NCBI RefSeq assembly: GCF_900631615.1
Contig: NZ_LR131273.1
Span: forward strand, 3,442,850 to 3,506,849
DNA length: 64,000 nucleotides
DNA from: Tsukamurella paurometabola
GTDB taxonomy: Bacteria; Actinomycetota; Actinomycetes; Mycobacteriales; Mycobacteriaceae
Reading direction: 5' to 3'
Both the position numbers and the translations under genes were made by a program. Shown in pieces: positions 35,438-45,985 of this stretch (positions are counted from its first letter, which is position 1; the number at the start of each line of letters is the position of its first letter). The notes under the pieces are model-generated. The model was not told the origin of the DNA. It did not search any database and saw nothing but the letters and a program-made list of their open reading frames with translations.

Positions 35438-37475
<2,038 letters not shown>

Positions 37476-37476
<1 letters not shown>

Positions 37477-37934
37477 TGCGCATGGAGCAGATGTACCAGG
37501 ACGTGATCCTGGACCACTACAAGCACCCGCACGGCCGCGGGCTGCGCGAACCCTTCGAGGCCGAGGTGCACCACGTCAACCCGACGTGCGGTGACGAGGT
37601 GACCCTGCGGGTGCACCTGTCCGACGATCACGAGACCGTCGTCGACGTCTCGTACGACGGCCAGGGCTGCTCGATCTCGCAGGCCTCCACCTCGGTCCTC
37701 ACCGACCAGGTGATCGGCGAACCCGTCGGCGAGGCCCTGAAGATGCTGCAGGCGTACACGGAGATGCTGCAGTCCCGGGGCCAGGTCGAGGGCGACGAGG
37801 ACCTCATCGGCGACGGCATCGCGTTCGCCGGCGTCTCGAAGTACCCCGCGCGCGTGAAGTGCGCGCTGCTCGGGTGGATGGCGTTCAAGGACGCGCTGTC
37901 CCAGATCATCGACTCGGAGGAGAAGACGGCATGA
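37476..37934 (+). CDS. sufU: SufU zinc-dependent sulfurtransferase
   Basis: Accepts persulfide sulfur from SufS. 152 residues with the zinc/catalytic set Cys38 and Asp40 (NPTCGDE), Cys65 (GQGCSIS) and Cys129 (VKCALL), plus the about 18-residue insertion (LQSRGQVEGDEDLIG) that separates SufU from IscU. Coupled to sufS; stop overlaps sufT. Confidence 0.95.
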
Positions 37935-38317
37935 GCGAGAACACTGCTGAGGCCGCCGGCACTGCGGCCGACCCGGCGCAGGCCGGCGACAACCCGCTGA
38001 ACCTGCCCACCCTGTTCGACGTCGAGGAAGCCATGCGCGACGTGGTCGATCCCGAGCTCGGCATCAACGTGGTCGACCTGGGCCTCGTCTACGACCTCAA
38101 GGTCGAGGACGACGCCTCGGTCATCATCGACATGACTCTGACCTCCGCGGCCTGCCCGCTGACCGACGTCATCGAGGACCAGACCCGCGCCGCGCTGGTC
38201 TCGTCCGGTCTCGCCACCGACGCCAAGATCAACTGGGTCTGGATGCCCCCGTGGGGCCCGGACAAGATCACCGACGACGGCCGCGAGCAGCTGCGCGCCC
38301 TCGGGTTCACGGTCTAG
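37931..38317 (+). CDS. sufT: SufT/MIP18-family (DUF59) Fe-S maturation factor
   Basis: Last gene of the suf operon. 128 residues: an alanine-rich N-terminal tail of about 30 residues, then the DUF59 core DVVDPELGINVVDLGLVYDL, TSAACPLTDVIEDQ with the conserved cysteine, and WMPPWGPDKITDDGREQLRALGF. Needed for Fe-S maturation in several bacteria. ATGA overlap with sufU. Confidence 0.93.
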   Translation: MSENTAEAAGTAADPAQAGDNPLNLPTLFDVEEAMRDVVDPELGINVVDLGLVYDLKVEDDASVIIDMTLTSAACPLTDVIEDQTRAALVSSGLATDAKINWVWMPPWGPDKITDDGREQLRALGFTV

Positions 38318-39117: not shown

Positions 39118-41802
39118 TCAGTCGGCAGCCGCCAGGGCCAGCCGCGCGTGCGCGCGCACGTCCGCGTCGGAATCCTCCAGTGCCGCGGTGAGTGCGGCGG
39201 CGACCGCCGGCACCTCCGGCCACGTCCGCAGCGTCACGACGGCGGCCTTGCGCACATCGAGGTGCGGGTCCGTCAGGGCCGATTCCAGGGCCGCGACCGC
39301 ACCGTCGGGTCCGAGGGCGACGGTGCCGCGCGCGGCGCCCTGGCGCACCTGCCACGCCCGGTCCTTGAGTCCGGCGGCGAGCAGGTCGAGGTCGGTGGCA
39401 TCGCCGAGCACGCCCAGGGCCTCGAGAGCCGCGGCCCGGACGAGCGGGTCGTGGTCGGCGGCCAGGGTGCGCGCCGCGTCGACGCCTCCGCGGCCCACGG
39501 TCGCCAGGCCCGTGGCCGCGGCGATCCGCACCTCCCGGTTCCCATCCGCGGTCGTCCGCGCCAGCGCCTCCCAATCGTCGTGCGCGACCAACCCGCTCAC
39601 GCCCACGACCCGCACCCGGTGATCCGGGTCGGTGCTCAGCGCGGCGAACTGCGCCGGCGTCCCCGCCTTGAGCGAGCGCAGGAGGTTCCCGACGGCCGCC
39701 CGCACCACGGCGTCGGCCGAGCCGAGGTGGTCGGCCAGCCCGTCCGCCGACGGCAGAACTTCCACCAGCTCGATCAGCCCCGCCGCGGCCGCGCGCCGGA
39801 CCAGGGCGTCCGCGTCGCCGAGTGCGGCGACGAGGGGAGCGAGGAAGCCGTCGGGCGCGCCCTCTACGAGGAACGTGACGGCGGTCCGCCGGACCGTCGT
39901 GTCCGGATCGGACAGGAATCGCGAGAGTTCCTCCACGGCAGGCCCGTCCAGCGCGAGCAGCTCCCGCAACCGCGGCGAGACCGCGGGTACCGCAGCCGCA
40001 CGCGGCGCCGCCGCGGGAAGCGCGCCGATCGGCGCCACCGCCAGCGGACCGAGCACCTCGACCGACGACGCGGATCCCGGGATGTGGTCGAACTCGTCCA
40101 CCGCGACCAGGTACGGCGCCACCGGCCGGGTCAGGAACTCCATCTCGCCGTCGGGACCCAGGCGCAGGTTCAGGTGCCGGCCCCATCGCTCGTCGTCGCG
40201 CTCGGGCAGGTCGGGGCGGTCGTGGTAGAGCCCCCAGCGGGATTCGGTGCGCGCCAGCGACGCCTTCGCCGCCATCTCCGCGCAGTCCCGGATGAACGAC
40301 ACCTCCACGCAGCGCATCAGCTCGTGCGGCGTCCGCGCGCCCAGCCCGCCGACCTCGCTGCGCATCCGCTCGAAGGTCTCGATCGCGATGGTCAGCTTCG
40401 GCGCCGTCTTCGGCGGGGCGATGTAGTCGTTGACGAAGCGCCGCAGTTTGTACTCGACCTGGGGCTGCGGCGGACCATCGGGCCTGCGCGCCGGACCGTA
40501 GATCAGCTCGTGCGCCGCCGCGATCTGCGACTCCAACCCCACGGACACGGCCGACACCGTGCGCGCGTGCCGCACCGCGTCCGCCCCGGCCAGCTCGCCG
40601 AAGACGAAGGCGCCGATCATGTAGTTGTGCGGCACGCACGCCAGATCGCCCGCCGCGTACAGGCCGGGCACGGTGGTGCGCGCGTTCTCGTCGACCCACA
40701 CCCCGGATGCGGAATGCCCACCGCACAGGCCGATCTCGGAGACGTGCATCTCGATGTCGTGGGTGCGGTAGTCGTGCCCGCGGTTCGCGTGGAAGGTGCC
40801 GCGGGTGGGTCGCTCGGTGGTGTGCAGGATCGACTCCAGCTCGCCGAGCGTCTCCTCCGGCAGGTGGGAGACCTTCAGGTAGATCGGCCCGCGGGCGGAA
40901 TCGATCTCGGAGCGCACCTCGGCGATCATCTGCCCGGACCAGTAGTCCGAGTCCACGAACCGTTCGCCCAGCGCGTTCACCTGGTAGCCGCCGAACGGGT
41001 TGGCCACGTAGGCGCACGCCGGTCCGTTGTAGTCCTTGATCAGCGGGTTGATCTGGAAGCACTCGATGCCGCTGAGCTCGGCGCCCGCGTGGTAGGCCAT
41101 GGCGTAGCCGTCCCCGGCGTTCGCCGGGTTCTCGTACGTGCCGTAGAGGTAGCCCGACGCGGGCAGCCCGAGGCGGCCGCACGGCCCCGTCGCCAGCACC
41201 ACCGCGCCGGCCCGGATCTCGACGAACTCGCCCGTGCGCGTGTTGAAGGCGACCGCACCCACGGCCCGCCGGTCCTCCCCGGAACCGGTCGTGAGCACGC
41301 GGACCGGCATCACCCGGTTCTCGATCCGGATGCGCTCGCGCATCTTCTTCTGGCGCAGCACGCGGTACAGCGCCTTCTTCACGTCCTTGCCCTCGGGCAT
41401 CGGCAGCACGTACGAGCCGGAACGGTGCACGCGGCGGACGGCGTACTCGCCGTACTCGTCCTTCTCGAATTTCACTCCGTACCGCTCGAGGCGCTGAATC
41501 ATCGCGAAGCCGCGGGTCGCGGTCTGGTAGACGGTCCGCTGGTCGACGATGCCGTCGTTGGCGCGGGTGATCTCGGCGACGTAGTCCTCGGGCTCCGCCT
41601 TGCCGGGGATGACGGCGTTGTTCACGCCGTCCATCCCCATCGCCAGCGCGCCCGAGTGGCGTACGTGCGACTTGTCGAGCAGCAGCACGTCGGCGCCGGC
41701 CTCGGCCGCGGTGAGCGCGGCCATCGTGCCCGCGGTACCGCCGCCGATCACGAGCACGTCGCAGGTCAGACGGGTGCGGTCGGCGATCTCGGGGATGTCC
41801 AT
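39118..41802 (-). CDS. AprA-like flavoprotein fused to HEAT-like repeats
   Basis: FAD oxidoreductase of the fumarate reductase/succinate dehydrogenase/adenylylsulfate reductase superfamily, 894 residues. FAD loop DVLVIGGGTAGTMAAL (15-30), then KSHVRHSGALAMGMDGVNN, closest in pattern to AprA (RSGAxAxGxxxxN), and SEIGLCGGHSASGVWVD in the second half, again AprA-like. From about residue 612 to the end are nine units of about 31 residues, each with a D-x4-VR signature (for example DPHLDVRK, DSDADVRA), that is, HEAT-like repeats. ATG 41802 follows AGGAG. Last gene of the operon with a matching AprB-like ferredoxin and an ABC importer. A sulfur-compound redox role is inferred; simple annotation as fumarate reductase is possible but unlikely without SdhB/C/D partners. 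Confidence 0.8.
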   Translation of the reverse strand: MDIPEIADRTRLTCDVLVIGGGTAGTMAALTAAEAGADVLLLDKSHVRHSGALAMGMDGVNNAVIPGKAEPEDYVAEITRANDGIVDQRTVYQTATRGFAMIQRLERYGVKFEKDEYGEYAVRRVHRSGSYVLPMPEGKDVKKALYRVLRQKKMRERIRIENRVMPVRVLTTGSGEDRRAVGAVAFNTRTGEFVEIRAGAVVLATGPCGRLGLPASGYLYGTYENPANAGDGYAMAYHAGAELSGIECFQINPLIKDYNGPACAYVANPFGGYQVNALGERFVDSDYWSGQMIAEVRSEIDSARGPIYLKVSHLPEETLGELESILHTTERPTRGTFHANRGHDYRTHDIEMHVSEIGLCGGHSASGVWVDENARTTVPGLYAAGDLACVPHNYMIGAFVFGELAGADAVRHARTVSAVSVGLESQIAAAHELIYGPARRPDGPPQPQVEYKLRRFVNDYIAPPKTAPKLTIAIETFERMRSEVGGLGARTPHELMRCVEVSFIRDCAEMAAKASLARTESRWGLYHDRPDLPERDDERWGRHLNLRLGPDGEMEFLTRPVAPYLVAVDEFDHIPGSASSVEVLGPLAVAPIGALPAAAPRAAAVPAVSPRLRELLALDGPAVEELSRFLSDPDTTVRRTAVTFLVEGAPDGFLAPLVAALGDADALVRRAAAAGLIELVEVLPSADGLADHLGSADAVVRAAVGNLLRSLKAGTPAQFAALSTDPDHRVRVVGVSGLVAHDDWEALARTTADGNREVRIAAATGLATVGRGGVDAARTLAADHDPLVRAAALEALGVLGDATDLDLLAAGLKDRAWQVRQGAARGTVALGPDGAVAALESALTDPHLDVRKAAVVTLRTWPEVPAVAAALTAALEDSDADVRAHARLALAAAD

Positions 41803-41819
41803 GGAACTCCTGAAGCTGG

Positions 41820-42572
41820 TCAGCGGTCGGTGAGGGCGTCGACGACACCCGCGCGCAGGGCGGAGGCCGACGGTGCGCGGCGCACGTCGAAGGCCGCGCG
41901 GACGGGCGCGCCGCGGCGGCCCAGCACGACGATGCGGTCGCCGAGGAGGATCGCCTCGTCCACGTCGTGGGTCACGAAGACGACGGTGGCGGGGTGGGCG
42001 TCGAGCGTGCGCAGCAGCAGCCGCTGCATGTCGCCGCGGGTCTGCGCGTCGAGGGCGCCGAAGGGCTCGTCCATGAGCACGGCCCGGGGCGCACCCGCGA
42101 GGCCGCGGGCGAGCTGGACCCGCTGCCGCATGCCGCCGGACAGCTCGCGGGGCAGGTGCTTCGCGTAGGCCGTCAGCCCGACCTCGGCGAGCCACCGCCG
42201 GGCCTCGTCGGCGCGACGGTGCCGTGCCACGCCCCGCAGCGCGAGCGCGAGCCGCACGTTGTTCTCGACGGTGCGCCACGGCAGCAGGGCGTCCTCCTGG
42301 AAGACCATGGCGCGGTCGCGATCCGGGCCGGTCACGGGCGCACCGTCGGCGAGGACGACACCGGAATCGGCGCGGAGCAGCCCGGCGAACGCGCGCAGCA
42401 CCGTCGACTTGCCGCAGCCCGACGGGCCCGTCAGGACCAGGCGTTCGCCGGGCTCGACGGTGAGGTCGAGCGCGCGCACGGCGGGCGTGCCGCGGTACCC
42501 GAGATCGACGGCGTCGAGTTTCAGCCGCAGCCCGTCGCGCTGCGCGGGCGGGCTGACCGTCGGCGCGCTCAT
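41820..42572 (-). CDS. SsuB/TauB/NrtD-type ABC importer ATPase
   Basis: 250-residue ATPase of the nitrate/sulfonate/taurine importer class. Walker A LTGPSGCGKSTVL (about 37-49), signature ELSGGMRQRVQLARGLAG, Walker B AVLMDEPFGALDAQT, switch histidine in VFVTHDVDEAI. ATG overlaps the permease stop; 17 bases separate its stop from the flavoprotein ATG. The substrate is not readable from the ATPase. Confidence 0.93.
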   Translation of the reverse strand: MSAPTVSPPAQRDGLRLKLDAVDLGYRGTPAVRALDLTVEPGERLVLTGPSGCGKSTVLRAFAGLLRADSGVVLADGAPVTGPDRDRAMVFQEDALLPWRTVENNVRLALALRGVARHRRADEARRWLAEVGLTAYAKHLPRELSGGMRQRVQLARGLAGAPRAVLMDEPFGALDAQTRGDMQRLLLRTLDAHPATVVFVTHDVDEAILLGDRIVVLGRRGAPVRAAFDVRRAPSASALRAGVVDALTDR

Positions 42573-43408
42573 CGGTCACCCCGCGGCAGCCAGCGGGTGA
42601 CCCTCCGGCCGGCCAGTTCGATGACGGCGGAGGTGAGGAAGCCCAGCACGCCGATCGTCAGCATGCCGACGAAGACCGCGGGGTAGTCGACGAGCGTGTA
42701 CGACTGCCACGTGCGGTAGCCCACGCCGAGGCGCCCGGAGATCATCTCGGCGGAGACGAGGCAGATCCACGCGACGCCCACGCCCACCGACAGCCCGGAG
42801 AAGACGCCGGGCAGCGAGCCGGGGAGCACGACCCGCCACAGCACCGCGAAGTCGCCGCCGCCCTGCGTGCGCACCGAGTCCTCCCAGACCGTCGGGAGCG
42901 CGCGGACGGCGTGCCGCACGCTCACCGCGATGGGGAAGAACGCGGCCGTCGCGGTGATCGCGACCATGCCCGCCTCGGAGGAGGGGAGTAGCAGGATCAT
43001 CACCGGGACCAGGGCGATCGCGGGAATGGGTCGGACCAGCTCGAGCAGCGTGCCGACGGTCAGCTCGGCGGCGCGCGAGCGGCCCAGCGCGACGCCGGCG
43101 GCGATGCCGAGCGCGGAGGCGACAGCGAAGCCGGTGCCGATGCGGATCAGCGACTGTGCGAGGTCCAGCCAGAACTCGCCGGTGCGGACCGACTGCGCGA
43201 ACCGCTCGGCGATGGCGCTCGCCGAGGGGAGCGTGTCGAACCGGATCCAGCCGAGTGCGACGTGCTGGGTGGTGAGCAGCTGCCAGACGCCGATCGCGGC
43301 GGCGACCACCGCGATCCGGACCGGCCACGCCGGGAGCACGGCCCGGCGGGCGGGGGCGGCGGCCGGCCGCCGGAGCGCCGCGGCGGGGAGCGAGTCGAGG
43401 GCGGTCAT
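42569..43408 (-). CDS. SsuC/TauC-type ABC importer permease
   Basis: 279 residues with six membrane segments and the binding-protein-dependent EAA-type loop (EDSVRTQGGGDFAVLWRVVLPGSLPGVFSG). Typical of sulfonate/nitrate/taurine importers. Both ends overlap neighbours (ATGA), so binding protein, permease and ATPase are co-translated. Confidence 0.93.
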   Translation of the reverse strand: MTALDSLPAAALRRPAAAPARRAVLPAWPVRIAVVAAAIGVWQLLTTQHVALGWIRFDTLPSASAIAERFAQSVRTGEFWLDLAQSLIRIGTGFAVASALGIAAGVALGRSRAAELTVGTLLELVRPIPAIALVPVMILLLPSSEAGMVAITATAAFFPIAVSVRHAVRALPTVWEDSVRTQGGGDFAVLWRVVLPGSLPGVFSGLSVGVGVAWICLVSAEMISGRLGVGYRTWQSYTLVDYPAVFVGMLTIGVLGFLTSAVIELAGRRVTRWLPRGDR

Positions 43409-44745
43409 CGTCGGGCCTCCTCGAGGAGGGCGCGGTACTCGACGGGGACGGCGCCGGGGTTCTCCGCGCGGTAGCGGTCGCGGGCGTCGGGGCCCGCGAA
43501 GGGTACGAGCGCCGCGCCGTCGCGCAGCCACAGCGATTGATCTGCGTACCAGCGGGTTCCGGTGAGGGCGTCCGAGACGTAGGCGGCGCGGACCTTCCGG
43601 TCGGTCGTGGCGAGCGTACGGATCAGCGCCGTCGCGTCGGGCGCGGTCTCGGTGGCGTCGGCGCCGTCGAACCAGATCTCCGCGGACGGCCTCGGCGCGG
43701 GCGTGGCGGCGTCGTACTGGAAGCCGCCGCGCGCGGTCTGGGCCGCTGCCAGGGGCTTCGGGTCGACGAACCGGTCGACGTCGAGCGGCGTGCCGAACTG
43801 GCCGATCGACTGCAGGTACCCGATGTCGCCCTTGAGTGCTCCGATGAGCGGGGCGGAGAGCGTCGGATTCGGGTCGGTGCCGCCCGGCCCGTTGTACTGG
43901 TACACGACCTCGGCGGGGAGGCCGCTGGCCTTCGCGACGTCCTGTGCGGCCTCGAGCGGGTGCTCGCGCTGGAAGTCGGTGGCGTCGAGCTGCGCCTGGA
44001 GGAAGGCGCGCACCACGTCCGGGTGCGACGCCGCATACTTCCGGTTGGCGACGACCCCGTGCAGGGTGGGCGTGTTCAGCTCGCCGCCGTCGTAGAGCAG
44101 TCGCGCCTTGCCCTGGCGCACGAGGAGGCCGGGCCAGGCGACGAACTGCGCCAGCGCCTGGACCTGGCCGGATTCGAGCGCGCTCGCCCCGACCTGCGGC
44201 TGCTGGTTCACCACGGTGACGTCGCCGGTGCCGATGCCCGCGCGGCTCAGCGCGGCGACGAGGGTGCCGTGCCCGGCGGAGCCGACCGATGCGGAGACCT
44301 GCGTGCCCCGCAGGTCGGCCAGGGAGCGCAGCGGGGAGCCGGTAGCGACCACCACCGAATTGAGGGCGCCCCGAGCGCTAGACCCGGTCACCGAGAGCAG
44401 TGCTGTCGCGGTGTCGGGACTGGACTGCGCTCGGGATCCATTGATGAGTAGGGGGTAGTCGCCCATCGAGCCGATCTGGATCTTGCCGGCGAGCATCCCG
44501 CTCGTGATCGGGGCGCCGGTGTCGAAGTCCTGCCAGTCGATGCGGAACTTCCCGACGGCGGCGAGGCGCTTCTCGAGGAAGCCCTTGGCTCGCAGCAGGG
44601 TGCCGGCGGTGACGGTGTTGATGGTCTTGGACTGGTAGCCCACCACCAGGGTCTGGGTGGACTCGTCGGCCGCGGGTTCGAGGGAGCAGGACGCGAGGGC
44701 GGCGGTCGCGGCGACGACGGCGACCGCGCGCAGGGCGGATGTCAT
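43405..44745 (-). CDS. ABC importer substrate-binding lipoprotein
   Basis: 446 residues. Lipoprotein signal with lipobox ALASC, then an SsuA/TauA/NMT1-like binding fold (VVGYQSKTINTVTAGTLL, IGSMGDYPLL, VSASVGSAGHGTLVAALSRAGI). It is about 100 residues longer than usual binding proteins; the extra C-terminal part (AAYVSDALTGTRWYADQSLW) weakly recalls NosL-type periplasmic domains. Anchored outside the membrane; ligand probably a small sulfonate-like anion by family, unproven. Overlaps the permease start. Confidence 0.88.
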   Translation of the reverse strand: MTSALRAVAVVAATAALASCSLEPAADESTQTLVVGYQSKTINTVTAGTLLRAKGFLEKRLAAVGKFRIDWQDFDTGAPITSGMLAGKIQIGSMGDYPLLINGSRAQSSPDTATALLSVTGSSARGALNSVVVATGSPLRSLADLRGTQVSASVGSAGHGTLVAALSRAGIGTGDVTVVNQQPQVGASALESGQVQALAQFVAWPGLLVRQGKARLLYDGGELNTPTLHGVVANRKYAASHPDVVRAFLQAQLDATDFQREHPLEAAQDVAKASGLPAEVVYQYNGPGGTDPNPTLSAPLIGALKGDIGYLQSIGQFGTPLDVDRFVDPKPLAAAQTARGGFQYDAATPAPRPSAEIWFDGADATETAPDATALIRTLATTDRKVRAAYVSDALTGTRWYADQSLWLRDGAALVPFAGPDARDRYRAENPGAVPVEYRALLEEARR

Positions 44746-44771
44746 GGCGGGGTTCTCCGGGGAAGGGCGGG

Positions 44772-44999
44772 CTAGCGCAGGAGGTAGGGCATGTTGACGG
44801 TGACGGCGCCCGTCGGGCAGCGCGCGGCACACGGCCCGCAGTACCAGCACTCGTCGACGTACATGTGGGCGCGGTTGGTGCTCGGGTCGAGCGCGAGCGA
44901 GTCGAGGGGGCAGGCCTCGATGCAGATGTTGCAGCCCTCGATGCAGAGGGAGGCGTCGATGGTGACGGGGACGTCGACGCGCTGTTCGACCTGTGCCAT
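44772..44999 (-). CDS. AprB-like 2[4Fe-4S] ferredoxin
   Basis: 75 residues with two cluster motifs: Cys19, 23, 26, 30 (C-X3-C-X2-C-X3-CP) and Cys51, 54, 57, 61 (C-X2-C-X2-C-X3-CP). The ECWYCGPCAARCPTGAVTV segment, with the conserved tryptophan, and the tail PYLLR resemble the N-terminal cluster domain of AprB (ECWECYSCVKICPQGAI). Probable electron partner of the AprA-like flavoprotein at the other end of this operon. Located 26 bases upstream of the binding-protein gene. Confidence 0.85.
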   Translation of the reverse strand: MAQVEQRVDVPVTIDASLCIEGCNICIEACPLDSLALDPSTNRAHMYVDECWYCGPCAARCPTGAVTVNMPYLLR

Positions 45000-45026
45000 G
45001 GGTGTGTGTTCCTCCGTGTCGGGGCG

Positions 45027-45752
45027 TCAGTCGCGGTGCAGGGTGCCGCGCAGGGTGATCCGGTCGGATCGGATGCGGATGTACTCGAGGTCGACGGGGC
45101 GGCCGCCCTCGAGGTGGGTGAGGCGCTCGTAGAGCAGGAGCGGCGAGCCGGTGGCGATCTCCAGGTTCGCGGCGGTGTGCGGATCGGCCGCCGCGGCGGT
45201 CAGGCAGTAGTCGCTGGTGCCGAGGCGATGACCCGTGACGGCCTCGATCAGCGGGAAGACGTCCTCGTTCTCGAGATCCTGTTCCAGCAGGAGATCACCG
45301 ATGTCGGCCACGAGGTAGGTCAGGTCGAGGCTCACGGGCTCGTCGTTGAGGTACCGCAGCCGTTCGAGGTACACGGCCTCGGCGCCGCGGGGGACTCCGA
45401 GCTTCTCGGCGACGATCGGGGGCGGCACGAGCCGGGTGGCGGTCCGCACGCGATTGCGGACCTCGCCGTGCAGCGCGAGCGTCTCCCGCAGGCCGCGGAG
45501 GCTGTCGAGGCTGTGGTCGACGGTGCGGGCGATCACCTCGGTGCCGACGCGCGGTCCCCGGCGGATCCAGCCCTCGGCGCGCAGGATCGACAGGGCCTCG
45601 CGGACGGTGCCCCGGGAGACGGAGAACTGGTCGCCGAGGTCGTCCTCGCCGGGCAGGGTCCCGCGGTAGGTGCCGTCGTGGATCGCCTGGCGCAGGACGT
45701 CGGCGACGATGCGCGCGGAATCGGCGCGGATCGGGCGGTCGGTCGCTGGCAT
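45027..45752 (-). CDS. GntR/HutC-family regulator
   Basis: 241 residues: N-terminal winged helix (about 15-75; LPGEDDLGDQFSVSRGTVREALSILRAEGWI) and a C-terminal UTRA effector domain (YLERLRYLNDEPVSLDLTYLV ... SPLLLYERLTHLEG). First gene of the operon, with a leaderless-type TATCGT promoter overlapped by a palindrome, so autorepression and effector-dependent control of the importer/AprBA-like genes are likely. The effector is probably the imported compound or a derivative (inference). Confidence 0.88.
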   Translation of the reverse strand: MPATDRPIRADSARIVADVLRQAIHDGTYRGTLPGEDDLGDQFSVSRGTVREALSILRAEGWIRRGPRVGTEVIARTVDHSLDSLRGLRETLALHGEVRNRVRTATRLVPPPIVAEKLGVPRGAEAVYLERLRYLNDEPVSLDLTYLVADIGDLLLEQDLENEDVFPLIEAVTGHRLGTSDYCLTAAAADPHTAANLEIATGSPLLLYERLTHLEGGRPVDLEYIRIRSDRITLRGTLHRD

Positions 45753-45791: not shown

Positions 45792-45880
45792 GTCGGAAGG
45801 GTGCCTCGGCGAAGGACCGGCGTCGGCGCGGGATTCCGCCGGTCGGCCCGCGCTCGCGGGGGCTCCGAACTGGGACTTCC

Positions 45881-45911
45881 CGGCGGTGGGCCGCTATTGC
45901 GCCACCCGCCG
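45881..45911 (-). terminator. Possible hairpin after the MarR-GNAT gene
   Basis: CGGCGGTGG pairs with CCACCCGCCG with one bulged C across a 12-base loop, on the downstream side of the minus-strand gene ending at 45986. The rest of 45792-45985 shows no gene I can support. Confidence 0.3.
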
Positions 45912-45985
45912 GAGCGCGCCGCGGATTTGAATCTCGCTGATCGACTGGTTCGGCGTCCGGGCCCTCGTGGGCGCTCGGACGGTCG

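What the first reader, a model, noticed from the sequence alone, without database searches (positions are those of the whole stretch)
39118..45752. AprBA-like oxidoreductase encoded in one operon with a sulfonate-type ABC importer and a GntR switch
Six co-directional genes with overlapping or near-overlapping ends encode GntR, a 2[4Fe-4S] ferredoxin, a lipoprotein binding protein, permease, ATPase and a large flavoprotein. The ferredoxin (ECWYCGPCAARCPTGAV) and the flavoprotein (SGALAMGMDGVNN; SEIGLCGGHSASGVW) both resemble the two subunits of adenylylsulfate reductase rather than succinate dehydrogenase, and no SdhB/C/D genes are present. Linking such a pair to an SsuABC-like importer in an aerobic actinobacterium suggests an undescribed route that imports a sulfur compound and oxidises or reduces it. 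The reaction itself is unknown.
Basis: partly seen in the sequence, partly recalled or inferred. Interest (0 to 1): 0.8.

Follow-up and report, generated by a model that had tools for sequence, protein, structure and literature searches.

The report
APS-reductase-like enzyme with sulfonate importer
A soil-type bacterium carries a six-gene unit that appears to import an organic sulfur compound and hand it to a two-part enzyme related to sulfate-respiration enzymes; the unit occurs in three bacterial phyla under a misleading name, and its reaction is unknown but testable.

Summary
In detail: six co-directional genes at 39118-45752 encode GntR/UTRA, a 2[4Fe-4S] ferredoxin, an SsuABC-type importer and a flavoprotein. 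NCBIfam already models the flavoprotein (NF010374, named fumarate reductase). Trees place it beside AprA and PAPS reductase, apart from SdhA/FrdA/NadB. It is not an APS or PAPS reductase: an Arg present in all four AprA/PAPSR-type reference rows shown is Leu in 94 of 94 family rows, and the curated AprA cut-offs are missed widely. The ferredoxin keeps the Trp reported for electron transfer in PAPS reductase but is far below the AprB cut-off. Gene order is conserved in 72 of 81 actinobacterial loci; ferredoxin and HEAT genes accompany the flavoprotein in 15 of 15 annotated loci read from Pseudomonadota and cyanobacteria. The binding protein keeps most sulfonate-holding residues. Best explanation: import of an organic sulfo compound and reductive release of sulfite by an AprA-type flavin (inferred, 0.45). 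Main rival: an actinobacterial form of the aryl-desulfonation cluster asf, alike in gene content but remote from the one asf-type pair I could compare. Structure prediction never ran.

The parts
45027..45752 (-). GntR/UTRA-type regulator, 241 aa
   Evidence: PF07702 UTRA 7e-33, PF00392 GntR 1.8e-14
44772..44999 (-). 2[4Fe-4S] ferredoxin, 75 aa; likely electron-carrying partner; W52 at the position of PAPS-reductase beta Trp42
   Evidence: Fer4_7 4e-9; alignment A3; Trp42 from PMC10322725 passages; AprB model only 25.8 bits
43405..44745 (-). Lipoprotein SsuA-type substrate-binding protein, 446 aa
   Evidence: SsuA_fam 9e-43, 146.5 bits, below its cut-off of 163.5; PDB 2x26, 6ssy, 3e4r
43405..43710 (-). 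C-terminal NosL-like domain of the binding protein (approximate limits); Pfam finds NosL in homologues, not in the window copy by itself
   Evidence: NosL in homologues down to 1.3e-6, none in the window segment; alignment
42569..43408 (-). ABC permease, SsuC-type, 279 aa
   Evidence: PF00528; best NCBIfam SsuC 107.3 bits, below cut-off 347
41820..42572 (-). ABC ATPase, TauB/SsuB-type, 250 aa
   Evidence: PF00005; best NCBIfam TauB 215.6 bits, below cut-off 357
40069..41802 (-). AprA/PAPS-reductase-like flavin domain of the flavoprotein (aa 1-578)
   Evidence: NF010374 1569.3 bits over cut-off 1196 for the whole protein; NF006131 851.7 over 587; tree
39118..40068 (-). HEAT-repeat domain fused to the flavoprotein (aa 579-894); a separate gene in the Pseudomonadota and cyanobacteria read
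   Evidence: HEAT_2 4.3e-27; separate genes in 15 of 15 annotated loci
45833..45946 (-). Conserved upstream region: degenerate dyad (45926-45946), GGTGGCGCAAT (45896-45906), CCGGCGGAAT (45833-45842); putative operators
   Evidence: no RNA structure and no Rfam family

Best explanation
The operon is a sulfur-scavenging unit. An SsuA-type lipoprotein captures an organic compound bearing a sulfo group (a sulfonate, or an S-, N- or O-sulfo compound) and SsuBC-type proteins import it. The flavoprotein and the 2[4Fe-4S] ferredoxin form an AprAB-type complex. The ferredoxin passes electrons to FAD, the reduced flavin N5 attacks the sulfo sulfur as proposed for APS and PAPS reductases, the organic part leaves, and sulfite is released to the genome's ordinary sulfite reductase. 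The HEAT part is a docking or assembly scaffold. The GntR/UTRA protein senses the compound or a product. Shown here: gene content, order and conservation; kinship of the flavoprotein to AprA/PAPSR; an altered active site; the conserved ferredoxin Trp; mostly conserved sulfonate-holding residues; PAPS_reduct-family and sulfite-reductase-family genes elsewhere in the genome. Inferred: complex formation, electron flow, substrate class, direction of the reaction and sulfite as product.
For: AprA/PAPSR side of the tree at 94/90 with all 37 rows and 100/100 without the two longest; phmmer 8a8o 4.9e-57 against AprA 4.6e-28 and SdhA 1.9e-21. In 94 of 94 rows: the Asn at AprA position 74, the active-site His, and the K-D and S-E pairs kept; the column of AprA Arg265 is Leu; a new set R331, H338, R341, R346 is invariant. 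Ferredoxin Trp kept in 8 of 8 family ferredoxins aligned and in the Ilyobacter beta subunit, not in the AsfB-like one. SBP: Gln 87/90, Gly 89/90, Gly 76/90 and an aromatic (Phe) 90/90 at sulfonate-contacting positions of X. citri SsuA. Importer trio within the stretch read in 12 of 15 annotated non-actinobacterial loci; genes labelled TauE/SafE sulfite exporter in 3 of 15, YeiH-type or putative sulfate exporter in 2 of 15. PF01507 and PF01077 matches lie side by side at 3.104-3.107 Mb.
Against: No reaction or ligand is shown. Loss of the AprA Arg could mean a different chemistry altogether. Carbon is a poor leaving group, so for simple alkanesulfonates the mechanism is chemically doubtful; an S-sulfo, N-sulfo or activated sulfonate would fit better. 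The ferredoxin is far below the AprB cut-off (25.8 against 135.65 bits) and its best PDB matches are other ferredoxins. No importer protein reaches a curated sulfonate or taurine cut-off, and SsuA Ser141 is Ala 78/90 or Thr 12/90. No structure could be predicted. NMT1-type binding proteins also take other ligands.
Confidence: 0.45

Rival explanations
1. It is the actinobacterial version of the asf (arylsulfonate desulfonation) cluster: the flavoprotein and ferredoxin carry electrons to a separate flavin monooxygenase of SsuD type, which cleaves imported aromatic sulfonates with oxygen.
For: asf is described as a binding protein, an ABC transporter, a reductase/ferredoxin system and a regulator needed for aromatic sulfonates (PMC4267179, passages). 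Flavoprotein-ferredoxin-binding protein is the gene order in Cupriavidus, Aquabacterium, Paraburkholderia and Acinetobacter loci. Genera reported to carry asfA (PMC4267179 and PMC9694294, passages) include Variovorax, Cupriavidus, Paraburkholderia and Rhodococcus, which also hold this family. SsuD-like genes (E <= 1e-100) in 31 of 35 carriers against 79 of 116 non-carriers, p 0.017, not corrected for genome size or kinship.
Against: C. metallidurans CH34 is said to have AsfA/AsfB as Rmet_4334/5 (PMC2864759, passages). On its megaplasmid the only Fer4_7 match over cut-off, a 111-aa ferredoxin, sits beside a 549-aa flavoprotein that is 29% identical to the window protein over 239 residues; in the tree it falls with Sdh/Frd/NadB, but on a very long branch whose place is unsure. 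Its ferredoxin lacks the Trp. The regulator here is GntR, not LysR. 4 of 35 carriers lack an SsuD-like match at that threshold, and 0 of 151 genomes reach the SsuD model's own cut-off.
Confidence: 0.3
2. An oxidative, AprBA-like role: the complex oxidises sulfite, or another imported reduced sulfur oxyanion, and the importer brings its precursor.
For: Dissimilatory AprAB enzymes are reversible (PMC10322725, passages). Sulfite-exporter genes lie nearby in some cyanobacterial and betaproteobacterial loci.
Against: For the nearer relative, the methanogen PAPS reductase, the reverse reaction could not be measured (same passages). AprA Arg265 and Gln145 are not kept in any of 94 family rows (roles recalled). 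No sat, cysC or cysD gene is annotated in the stretches of the 15 loci read, whose gene tables are incomplete, unlike the Ilyobacter PAPSR-type cluster.
Confidence: 0.12
3. The substrate is not a sulfur compound; the unit imports and reduces or oxidises another oxyanion or carboxylate with an SdhA-like fold.
For: NMT1-type binding proteins have varied ligands; no importer protein reaches a curated sulfonate cut-off; one homologous binding protein is named nitrate ABC transporter in its record.
Against: Fumarate-site residues of SdhA/FrdA are absent (roles recalled). SBP positions that hold a sulfonate are mostly kept. Several neighbouring genes elsewhere carry sulfur-related names.
Confidence: 0.13

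Closest known systems
PAPS reductase of Methanothermococcus thermolithotrophicus (8a8o) and the Ilyobacter cysC-apr-like cluster
   Same: alpha flavoprotein of the fumarate-reductase fold with a small 2[4Fe-4S] beta subunit; active-site Asn and His and the ferredoxin Trp kept
   Different: Ilyobacter alpha 25% identical; Arg replaced by Leu; no sulfate-activation genes annotated beside it in the loci read; HEAT domain, importer and regulator added; ferredoxin 75 aa against 104
Dissimilatory adenylylsulfate reductase AprAB
   Same: flavoprotein on the same side of the tree; 2[4Fe-4S] partner
   Different: TIGR02061 128.8 bits against cut-off 641.75; TIGR02060 (AprB) 25.8 against 135.65; Arg265 and Gln145 lost
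asfRABC, aromatic sulfonate desulfonation
   Same: reductase + ferredoxin + binding protein/ABC importer + regulator in one cluster; shared genera
   Different: the CH34 asf-type pair is remote in sequence; GntR instead of LysR; HEAT part here; the asf biochemistry is itself unresolved in what I read
NF010374/PRK13800 and NF006131/PRK08275, named fumarate reductase/succinate dehydrogenase flavoprotein subunit
   Same: the window protein is a full member by score
   Different: the family name implies a fumarate/succinate reaction that the sequence does not support

Membership tests
NF010374 (PRK13800) | whole-protein score over curated cut-off 1196 bits | tested here: met
   1569.3 bits, profile positions 1-897 of 898
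Dissimilatory AprA | TIGR02061 score over 641.75 bits | tested here: not met
   128.8 bits
Dissimilatory AprA | active-site Arg265 (role recalled) and APS-side Gln145 (PMC10322725) | tested here: not met
   Leu in 94/94 and Val in 94/94. The Glu141 column is variable in the family, but the two AprA-like rows shown also have Ser there, so it says little
Dissimilatory AprB | TIGR02060 score over 135.65 bits | tested here: not met
   25.8 bits
PAPS-reductase type (NF005331) | score over 557 bits | tested here: not met
   268.2 bits
AprAB/PAPSR superfamily | flavoprotein groups with AprA/PAPSR, apart from SdhA/FrdA/NadB | tested here: met
   94/90 with all 37 rows, long-branch warnings printed; 100/100 with two long rows left out
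AprAB/PAPSR superfamily | 2[4Fe-4S] subunit with eight Cys and electron-transfer Trp | tested here: met
   Trp42 named in PMC10322725
Succinate dehydrogenase/fumarate reductase | TIGR01812 score over 567.3; fumarate-site His/Arg (recalled); B, C, D subunits | tested here: not met
   141.5 bits; residues differ; none among the six operon genes
SsuABC/TauABC importer | curated cut-offs of SsuA, TauA, SsuC and TauB models | tested here: not met
   best models are of these kinds, but all below cut-off
SsuABC/TauABC importer | sulfonate-holding residues Gln, Gly, Gly, Ser/Thr plus aromatic | tested here: inconclusive
   Gln, both Gly and an aromatic mostly kept; Ser141 is Ala 78/90 or Thr 12/90
asf cluster | reductase + ferredoxin + binding protein + regulator | tested here: met
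   gene content; the regulator is GntR, not LysR
asf cluster | orthology to a described AsfA/AsfB | tested here: inconclusive
   remote from the CH34 pair; papers with the S-313 system not held
asf cluster | needed for growth on aromatic sulfonates | not testable with these tools
   needs a mutant

The most novel reading that the evidence does not exclude
A third branch of the AprA superfamily, found in actinobacteria, Pseudomonadota and cyanobacteria, that reductively cleaves sulfo groups from imported organic compounds: an oxygen-independent route to sulfite carried out by a ferredoxin-fed flavin and coupled to its own importer with a NosL-like binding protein.
Probability: 0.33. Interest if true: 0.8.

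Novelty: new variant of a known kind. Interest (0 to 1): 0.55.

Why it matters
Sulfate esters and sulfonates are the major organic sulfur forms in soil (PMC4267179, abstract seen). For sulfonates, the bacterial route described there is a monooxygenase system, which uses oxygen. A widespread AprA-type complex tied to a sulfonate-type importer would be a different chemistry, would correct the reaction implied by the current family name for a large group of genes (587 relatives in one capped scan, of which 80 were kept), and would bear on the unresolved role of the reductase-ferredoxin pair in aromatic desulfonation.

Tried and rejected
First idea rejected in its simple form: the operon is asf. 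The CH34 reductase-ferredoxin pair turned out remote; kept as a rival because S-313 AsfA was not available.

Upstream element as a riboswitch: rejected. RNAalifold gave 0 pairs on 58 aligned copies, no convincing covarying helix was seen, and no Rfam match lies there (E up to 5). Kept as putative DNA operators. A regulon search with GGTGGCGCAAT gave 3 exact places in the genome, about what chance gives by my own estimate; up to one mismatch, 72 places against 60 for the pattern read backwards.

Neighbour clustering in 87 loci (81 actinobacterial, 6 plasmid loci) found no gene cluster outside the operon in more than 24 loci; I did not identify those clusters.

A paper search for the family names found one incidental mention of PRK13800 and none of PRK08275 or NF010374. 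In the listings of searches by gene content (1 paper; none; 15 of 21 listed; 30 of 53 listed) I saw no title on this unit. The library holds open-licence papers only.

Gordonia, Rhodococcus and Acinetobacter sulfur-source papers (PMC7661421, PMC8557817, PMC13352529; term searches and passages) do not contain the term fumarate reductase.

Bradyrhizobium bll6449-bll6455 as the same unit: not settled; the passages seen name a methyltransferase and a binding protein only.

Full report
Observation. The genome is 4.70 Mb in one contig; the nearest named relatives are Tsukamurella. Pfam and NCBIfam confirm each gene. Two things were missed. The flavoprotein is 894 aa, with a flavin part (1-578) and C-terminal HEAT repeats (HEAT_2 4e-27). 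The binding protein, 446 aa, is over 100 residues longer than the solved SsuA chains of 308 and 324 residues, and its tail is NosL-like: of seven long homologues scanned, all seven match PF05573 at E 1.3e-6 to 0.11 and three pass the Pfam cut-off; a shorter homologue (342 aa) and the window tail alone give no hit. The tail aligns across 90 sequences with an invariant Trp.

What family. NCBIfam holds the flavoprotein as NF010374 (1569.3 bits, cut-off 1196) and NF006131 (851.7, cut-off 587), named fumarate reductase/succinate dehydrogenase flavoprotein subunit. Against PDB the best match is the PAPS reductase alpha subunit of M. thermolithotrophicus (8a8o, 4.9e-57), then, apart from synthetic repeat proteins that match the HEAT part, AprA (4.6e-28) and SdhA (1.9e-21). 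In a maximum-likelihood tree of 37 rows the family and the AprA/PAPSR-like rows lie on one side (94/90). With the very long AsfA-like and TfrA-like rows left out, that split is 100/100 against SdhA, FrdA and NadB, and the family itself is one side of a branch at 97/98. Long-branch warnings were printed for both trees. For the ferredoxin the case is thinner: TIGR02060 (AprB) gives 25.8 bits against a cut-off of 135.65, and its best PDB matches are MvhB and formylmethanofuran-dehydrogenase ferredoxins, with AprB at 1.6e-6 and PAPSR beta at 6e-5.

Active site. I read columns from an alignment of 94 family rows with outgroups, eight of which were printed: two PAPSR-type, two AprA-like, SdhA, FrdA, NadB and the CH34 AsfA-like row. 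The AprA residue roles are recalled; the positions were read from the phmmer alignment to 1jnr, except His398, which I place by the PAPSR alignment. Kept in 94 of 94: Asn61 (AprA Asn74), His363 (AprA His398 as recalled), Lys256-Asp257 and Ser355-Glu356. Changed: AprA Trp234 is Tyr223 (94/94); Arg265 is Leu254 (94/94), while the four AprA/PAPSR rows printed have Arg; Gln145 is Val132 (94/94; the two AprA-like rows have Gln, the two PAPSR-type rows Ser and Asn). The column of Glu141 is variable, but the two AprA-like rows have Ser there too, so it says little. New and invariant: Cys248, Gln250, Asn252, Arg331, His338, Arg341, Arg346. The SdhA/FrdA motifs for fumarate are absent. The site is therefore probably built for something other than APS, PAPS or fumarate. 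The PAPS reductase paper proposes attack of flavin N5 on the sulfo sulfur and names Trp42 for electron transfer (PMC10322725, passages). In the Ilyobacter beta subunit Trp 42 aligns with W52 of the window ferredoxin; it is kept in all eight family ferredoxins of that alignment and absent from the AsfB-like protein of CH34.

Conservation. Of 81 actinobacterial loci (80 from one capped scan plus the Tsukamurella plasmid), 72 show GntR-ferredoxin-SBP-permease-ATPase-flavin-HEAT in that order. Identity of the flavin part to the window is 80-97% in the 80 scan loci; in the 25 rows printed, HEAT is 47-68% apart from the closest Tsukamurella (89%). In 151 genomes of the same family, drawn from a larger group, 35 pass the NF010374 cut-off, including 5 of 10 of the own genus, so the unit is patchy. 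Outside actinobacteria I read 15 annotated plasmid loci out of the 54 records that match (a sixteenth, Variovorax, has no annotation). A ferredoxin and a separate HEAT gene accompany the flavoprotein in 15 of 15, a full SBP-permease-ATPase set in 12, a DUF971/GBBH-like_N gene in 8, Mrp/NBP35 in 3, a TauE/SafE gene in 3, and a YeiH-type or putative sulfate exporter gene in 2. The plasmid gene tables are incomplete, so absences are weak. The HEAT fusion in actinobacteria against separate genes elsewhere suggests that the two parts act together.

Importer. The SBP is best matched by SsuA_fam, the permease by SsuC and the ATPase by TauB, all below curated cut-offs. At positions that contact the ligand in X. 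citri SsuA (Gln36, Gly68, Gly86, Ser141, Trp185; PMC3839906, passages) the family has Gln 87/90, Gly 89/90, Gly 76/90 (Ala 14), Ala 78/90 or Thr 12/90, and Phe 90/90. E. coli TauA uses a Gln, two Gly and a Thr (PMC6906117, passages). This favours a sulfo ligand without proving one. One homologous SBP is named nitrate ABC transporter in its record.

Relation to asf. The asf cluster is described as a binding protein, ABC transporter, reductase/ferredoxin and LysR regulator needed for aromatic sulfonates, complementing the ssu monooxygenase (PMC4267179, passages). The gene order flavoprotein-ferredoxin-SBP in several proteobacterial loci and the genera involved fit. Against it, CH34 is reported to have AsfA/AsfB as Rmet_4334/5 (PMC2864759, passages); the only Fer4_7 match over cut-off on its megaplasmid, a small ferredoxin, adjoins a flavoprotein that is remote from this family. 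The best match to that CH34 flavoprotein in the window's own genome is the window flavoprotein itself (29%, E 2e-10). SsuD-like genes at E <= 1e-100 occur in 31 of 35 carriers and 79 of 116 non-carriers (p 0.017, no correction for genome size or kinship); four carriers lack one at that threshold, one of the four being a genome whose flavoprotein is split over two frames; 0 of 151 genomes reach the SsuD model's own cut-off.

Mechanism. The genome also holds PF01507 (PAPS_reduct) and PF01077 (NIR_SIR) matches side by side at 3.104-3.107 Mb, so it need not use this complex for sulfate, and sulfite made by it could be assimilated. My preferred reading is reductive release of sulfite from an imported sulfo compound. 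A carbon leaving group is chemically hard; S-sulfo, N-sulfo or activated sulfonates would be easier. That step is inference.

Upstream region. The 8-mer ATTGCGCC, on either strand, occurs in 57 of 76 upstream stretches of about 200 bases, window included. In 58 aligned copies there is a dyad TTCCGATC-ACCGT-GATCGGAA, chosen as the best of 48 placements tried (mean 5.5 of 8 paired, against a mean of 2.2 and a maximum of 3.1 at other positions), followed by GGTGGCGCAAT and CCGGCGCAAT boxes roughly 55-65 bases apart. Re-pairing arms between sequences gives the same mean (5.4), so the dyad is conserved but does not covary. The window's own dyad is degenerate. No RNA structure is supported.

Verdict. 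Real, conserved, under a doubtful name in databases and of unproved function: a new variant of the AprAB/PAPSR kind, with asf as the nearest described system in design.

Noticed in passing
window 43405-43710: NosL-like C-terminal domain fused to an SsuA-type binding protein, without evident metal-binding Cys/Met/His conserved in the rows shown; seen in all seven long homologues scanned.
   Followed up: partly
window 45833-45946 (minus strand): Conserved upstream array (dyad plus two GGCG(C)AAT-type boxes) before GntR in most actinobacterial loci examined; no RNA structure found.
   Followed up: partly
window 36205-38317: A class-V aminotransferase (SufS-like by my reading) and an FeS_assembly_P gene lie just downstream on the other strand; the Tsukamurella plasmid copy has different genes there.
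   Followed up: partly
L029 14275-18561: Beside the plasmid copy in T. tyrosinosolvens: nucleotidyltransferase, ThiF-type, Mov34-type and SAVED-domain genes, which look (recalled) like a CBASS-type defence island.
   Followed up: no
L042 7882-11015: C. metallidurans reductase-ferredoxin pair next to an FA_desaturase-family gene, with ABC ATPase and permease genes nearby by eye; the desaturase-type protein might be a missing oxygenase of asf.
   Followed up: no
L156 7143-14035: Acidithiobacillus caldus plasmid pTcM1 carries flavoprotein, ferredoxin and HEAT without a full importer in the stretch seen, followed by FdxA and a 1153-aa FAD oxidoreductase.
   Followed up: no
window 45605-45651 (minus strand): Sub-threshold Guanidine-II match (20.7 bits, gathering 32) inside the GntR coding region; probably chance.
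   Followed up: no
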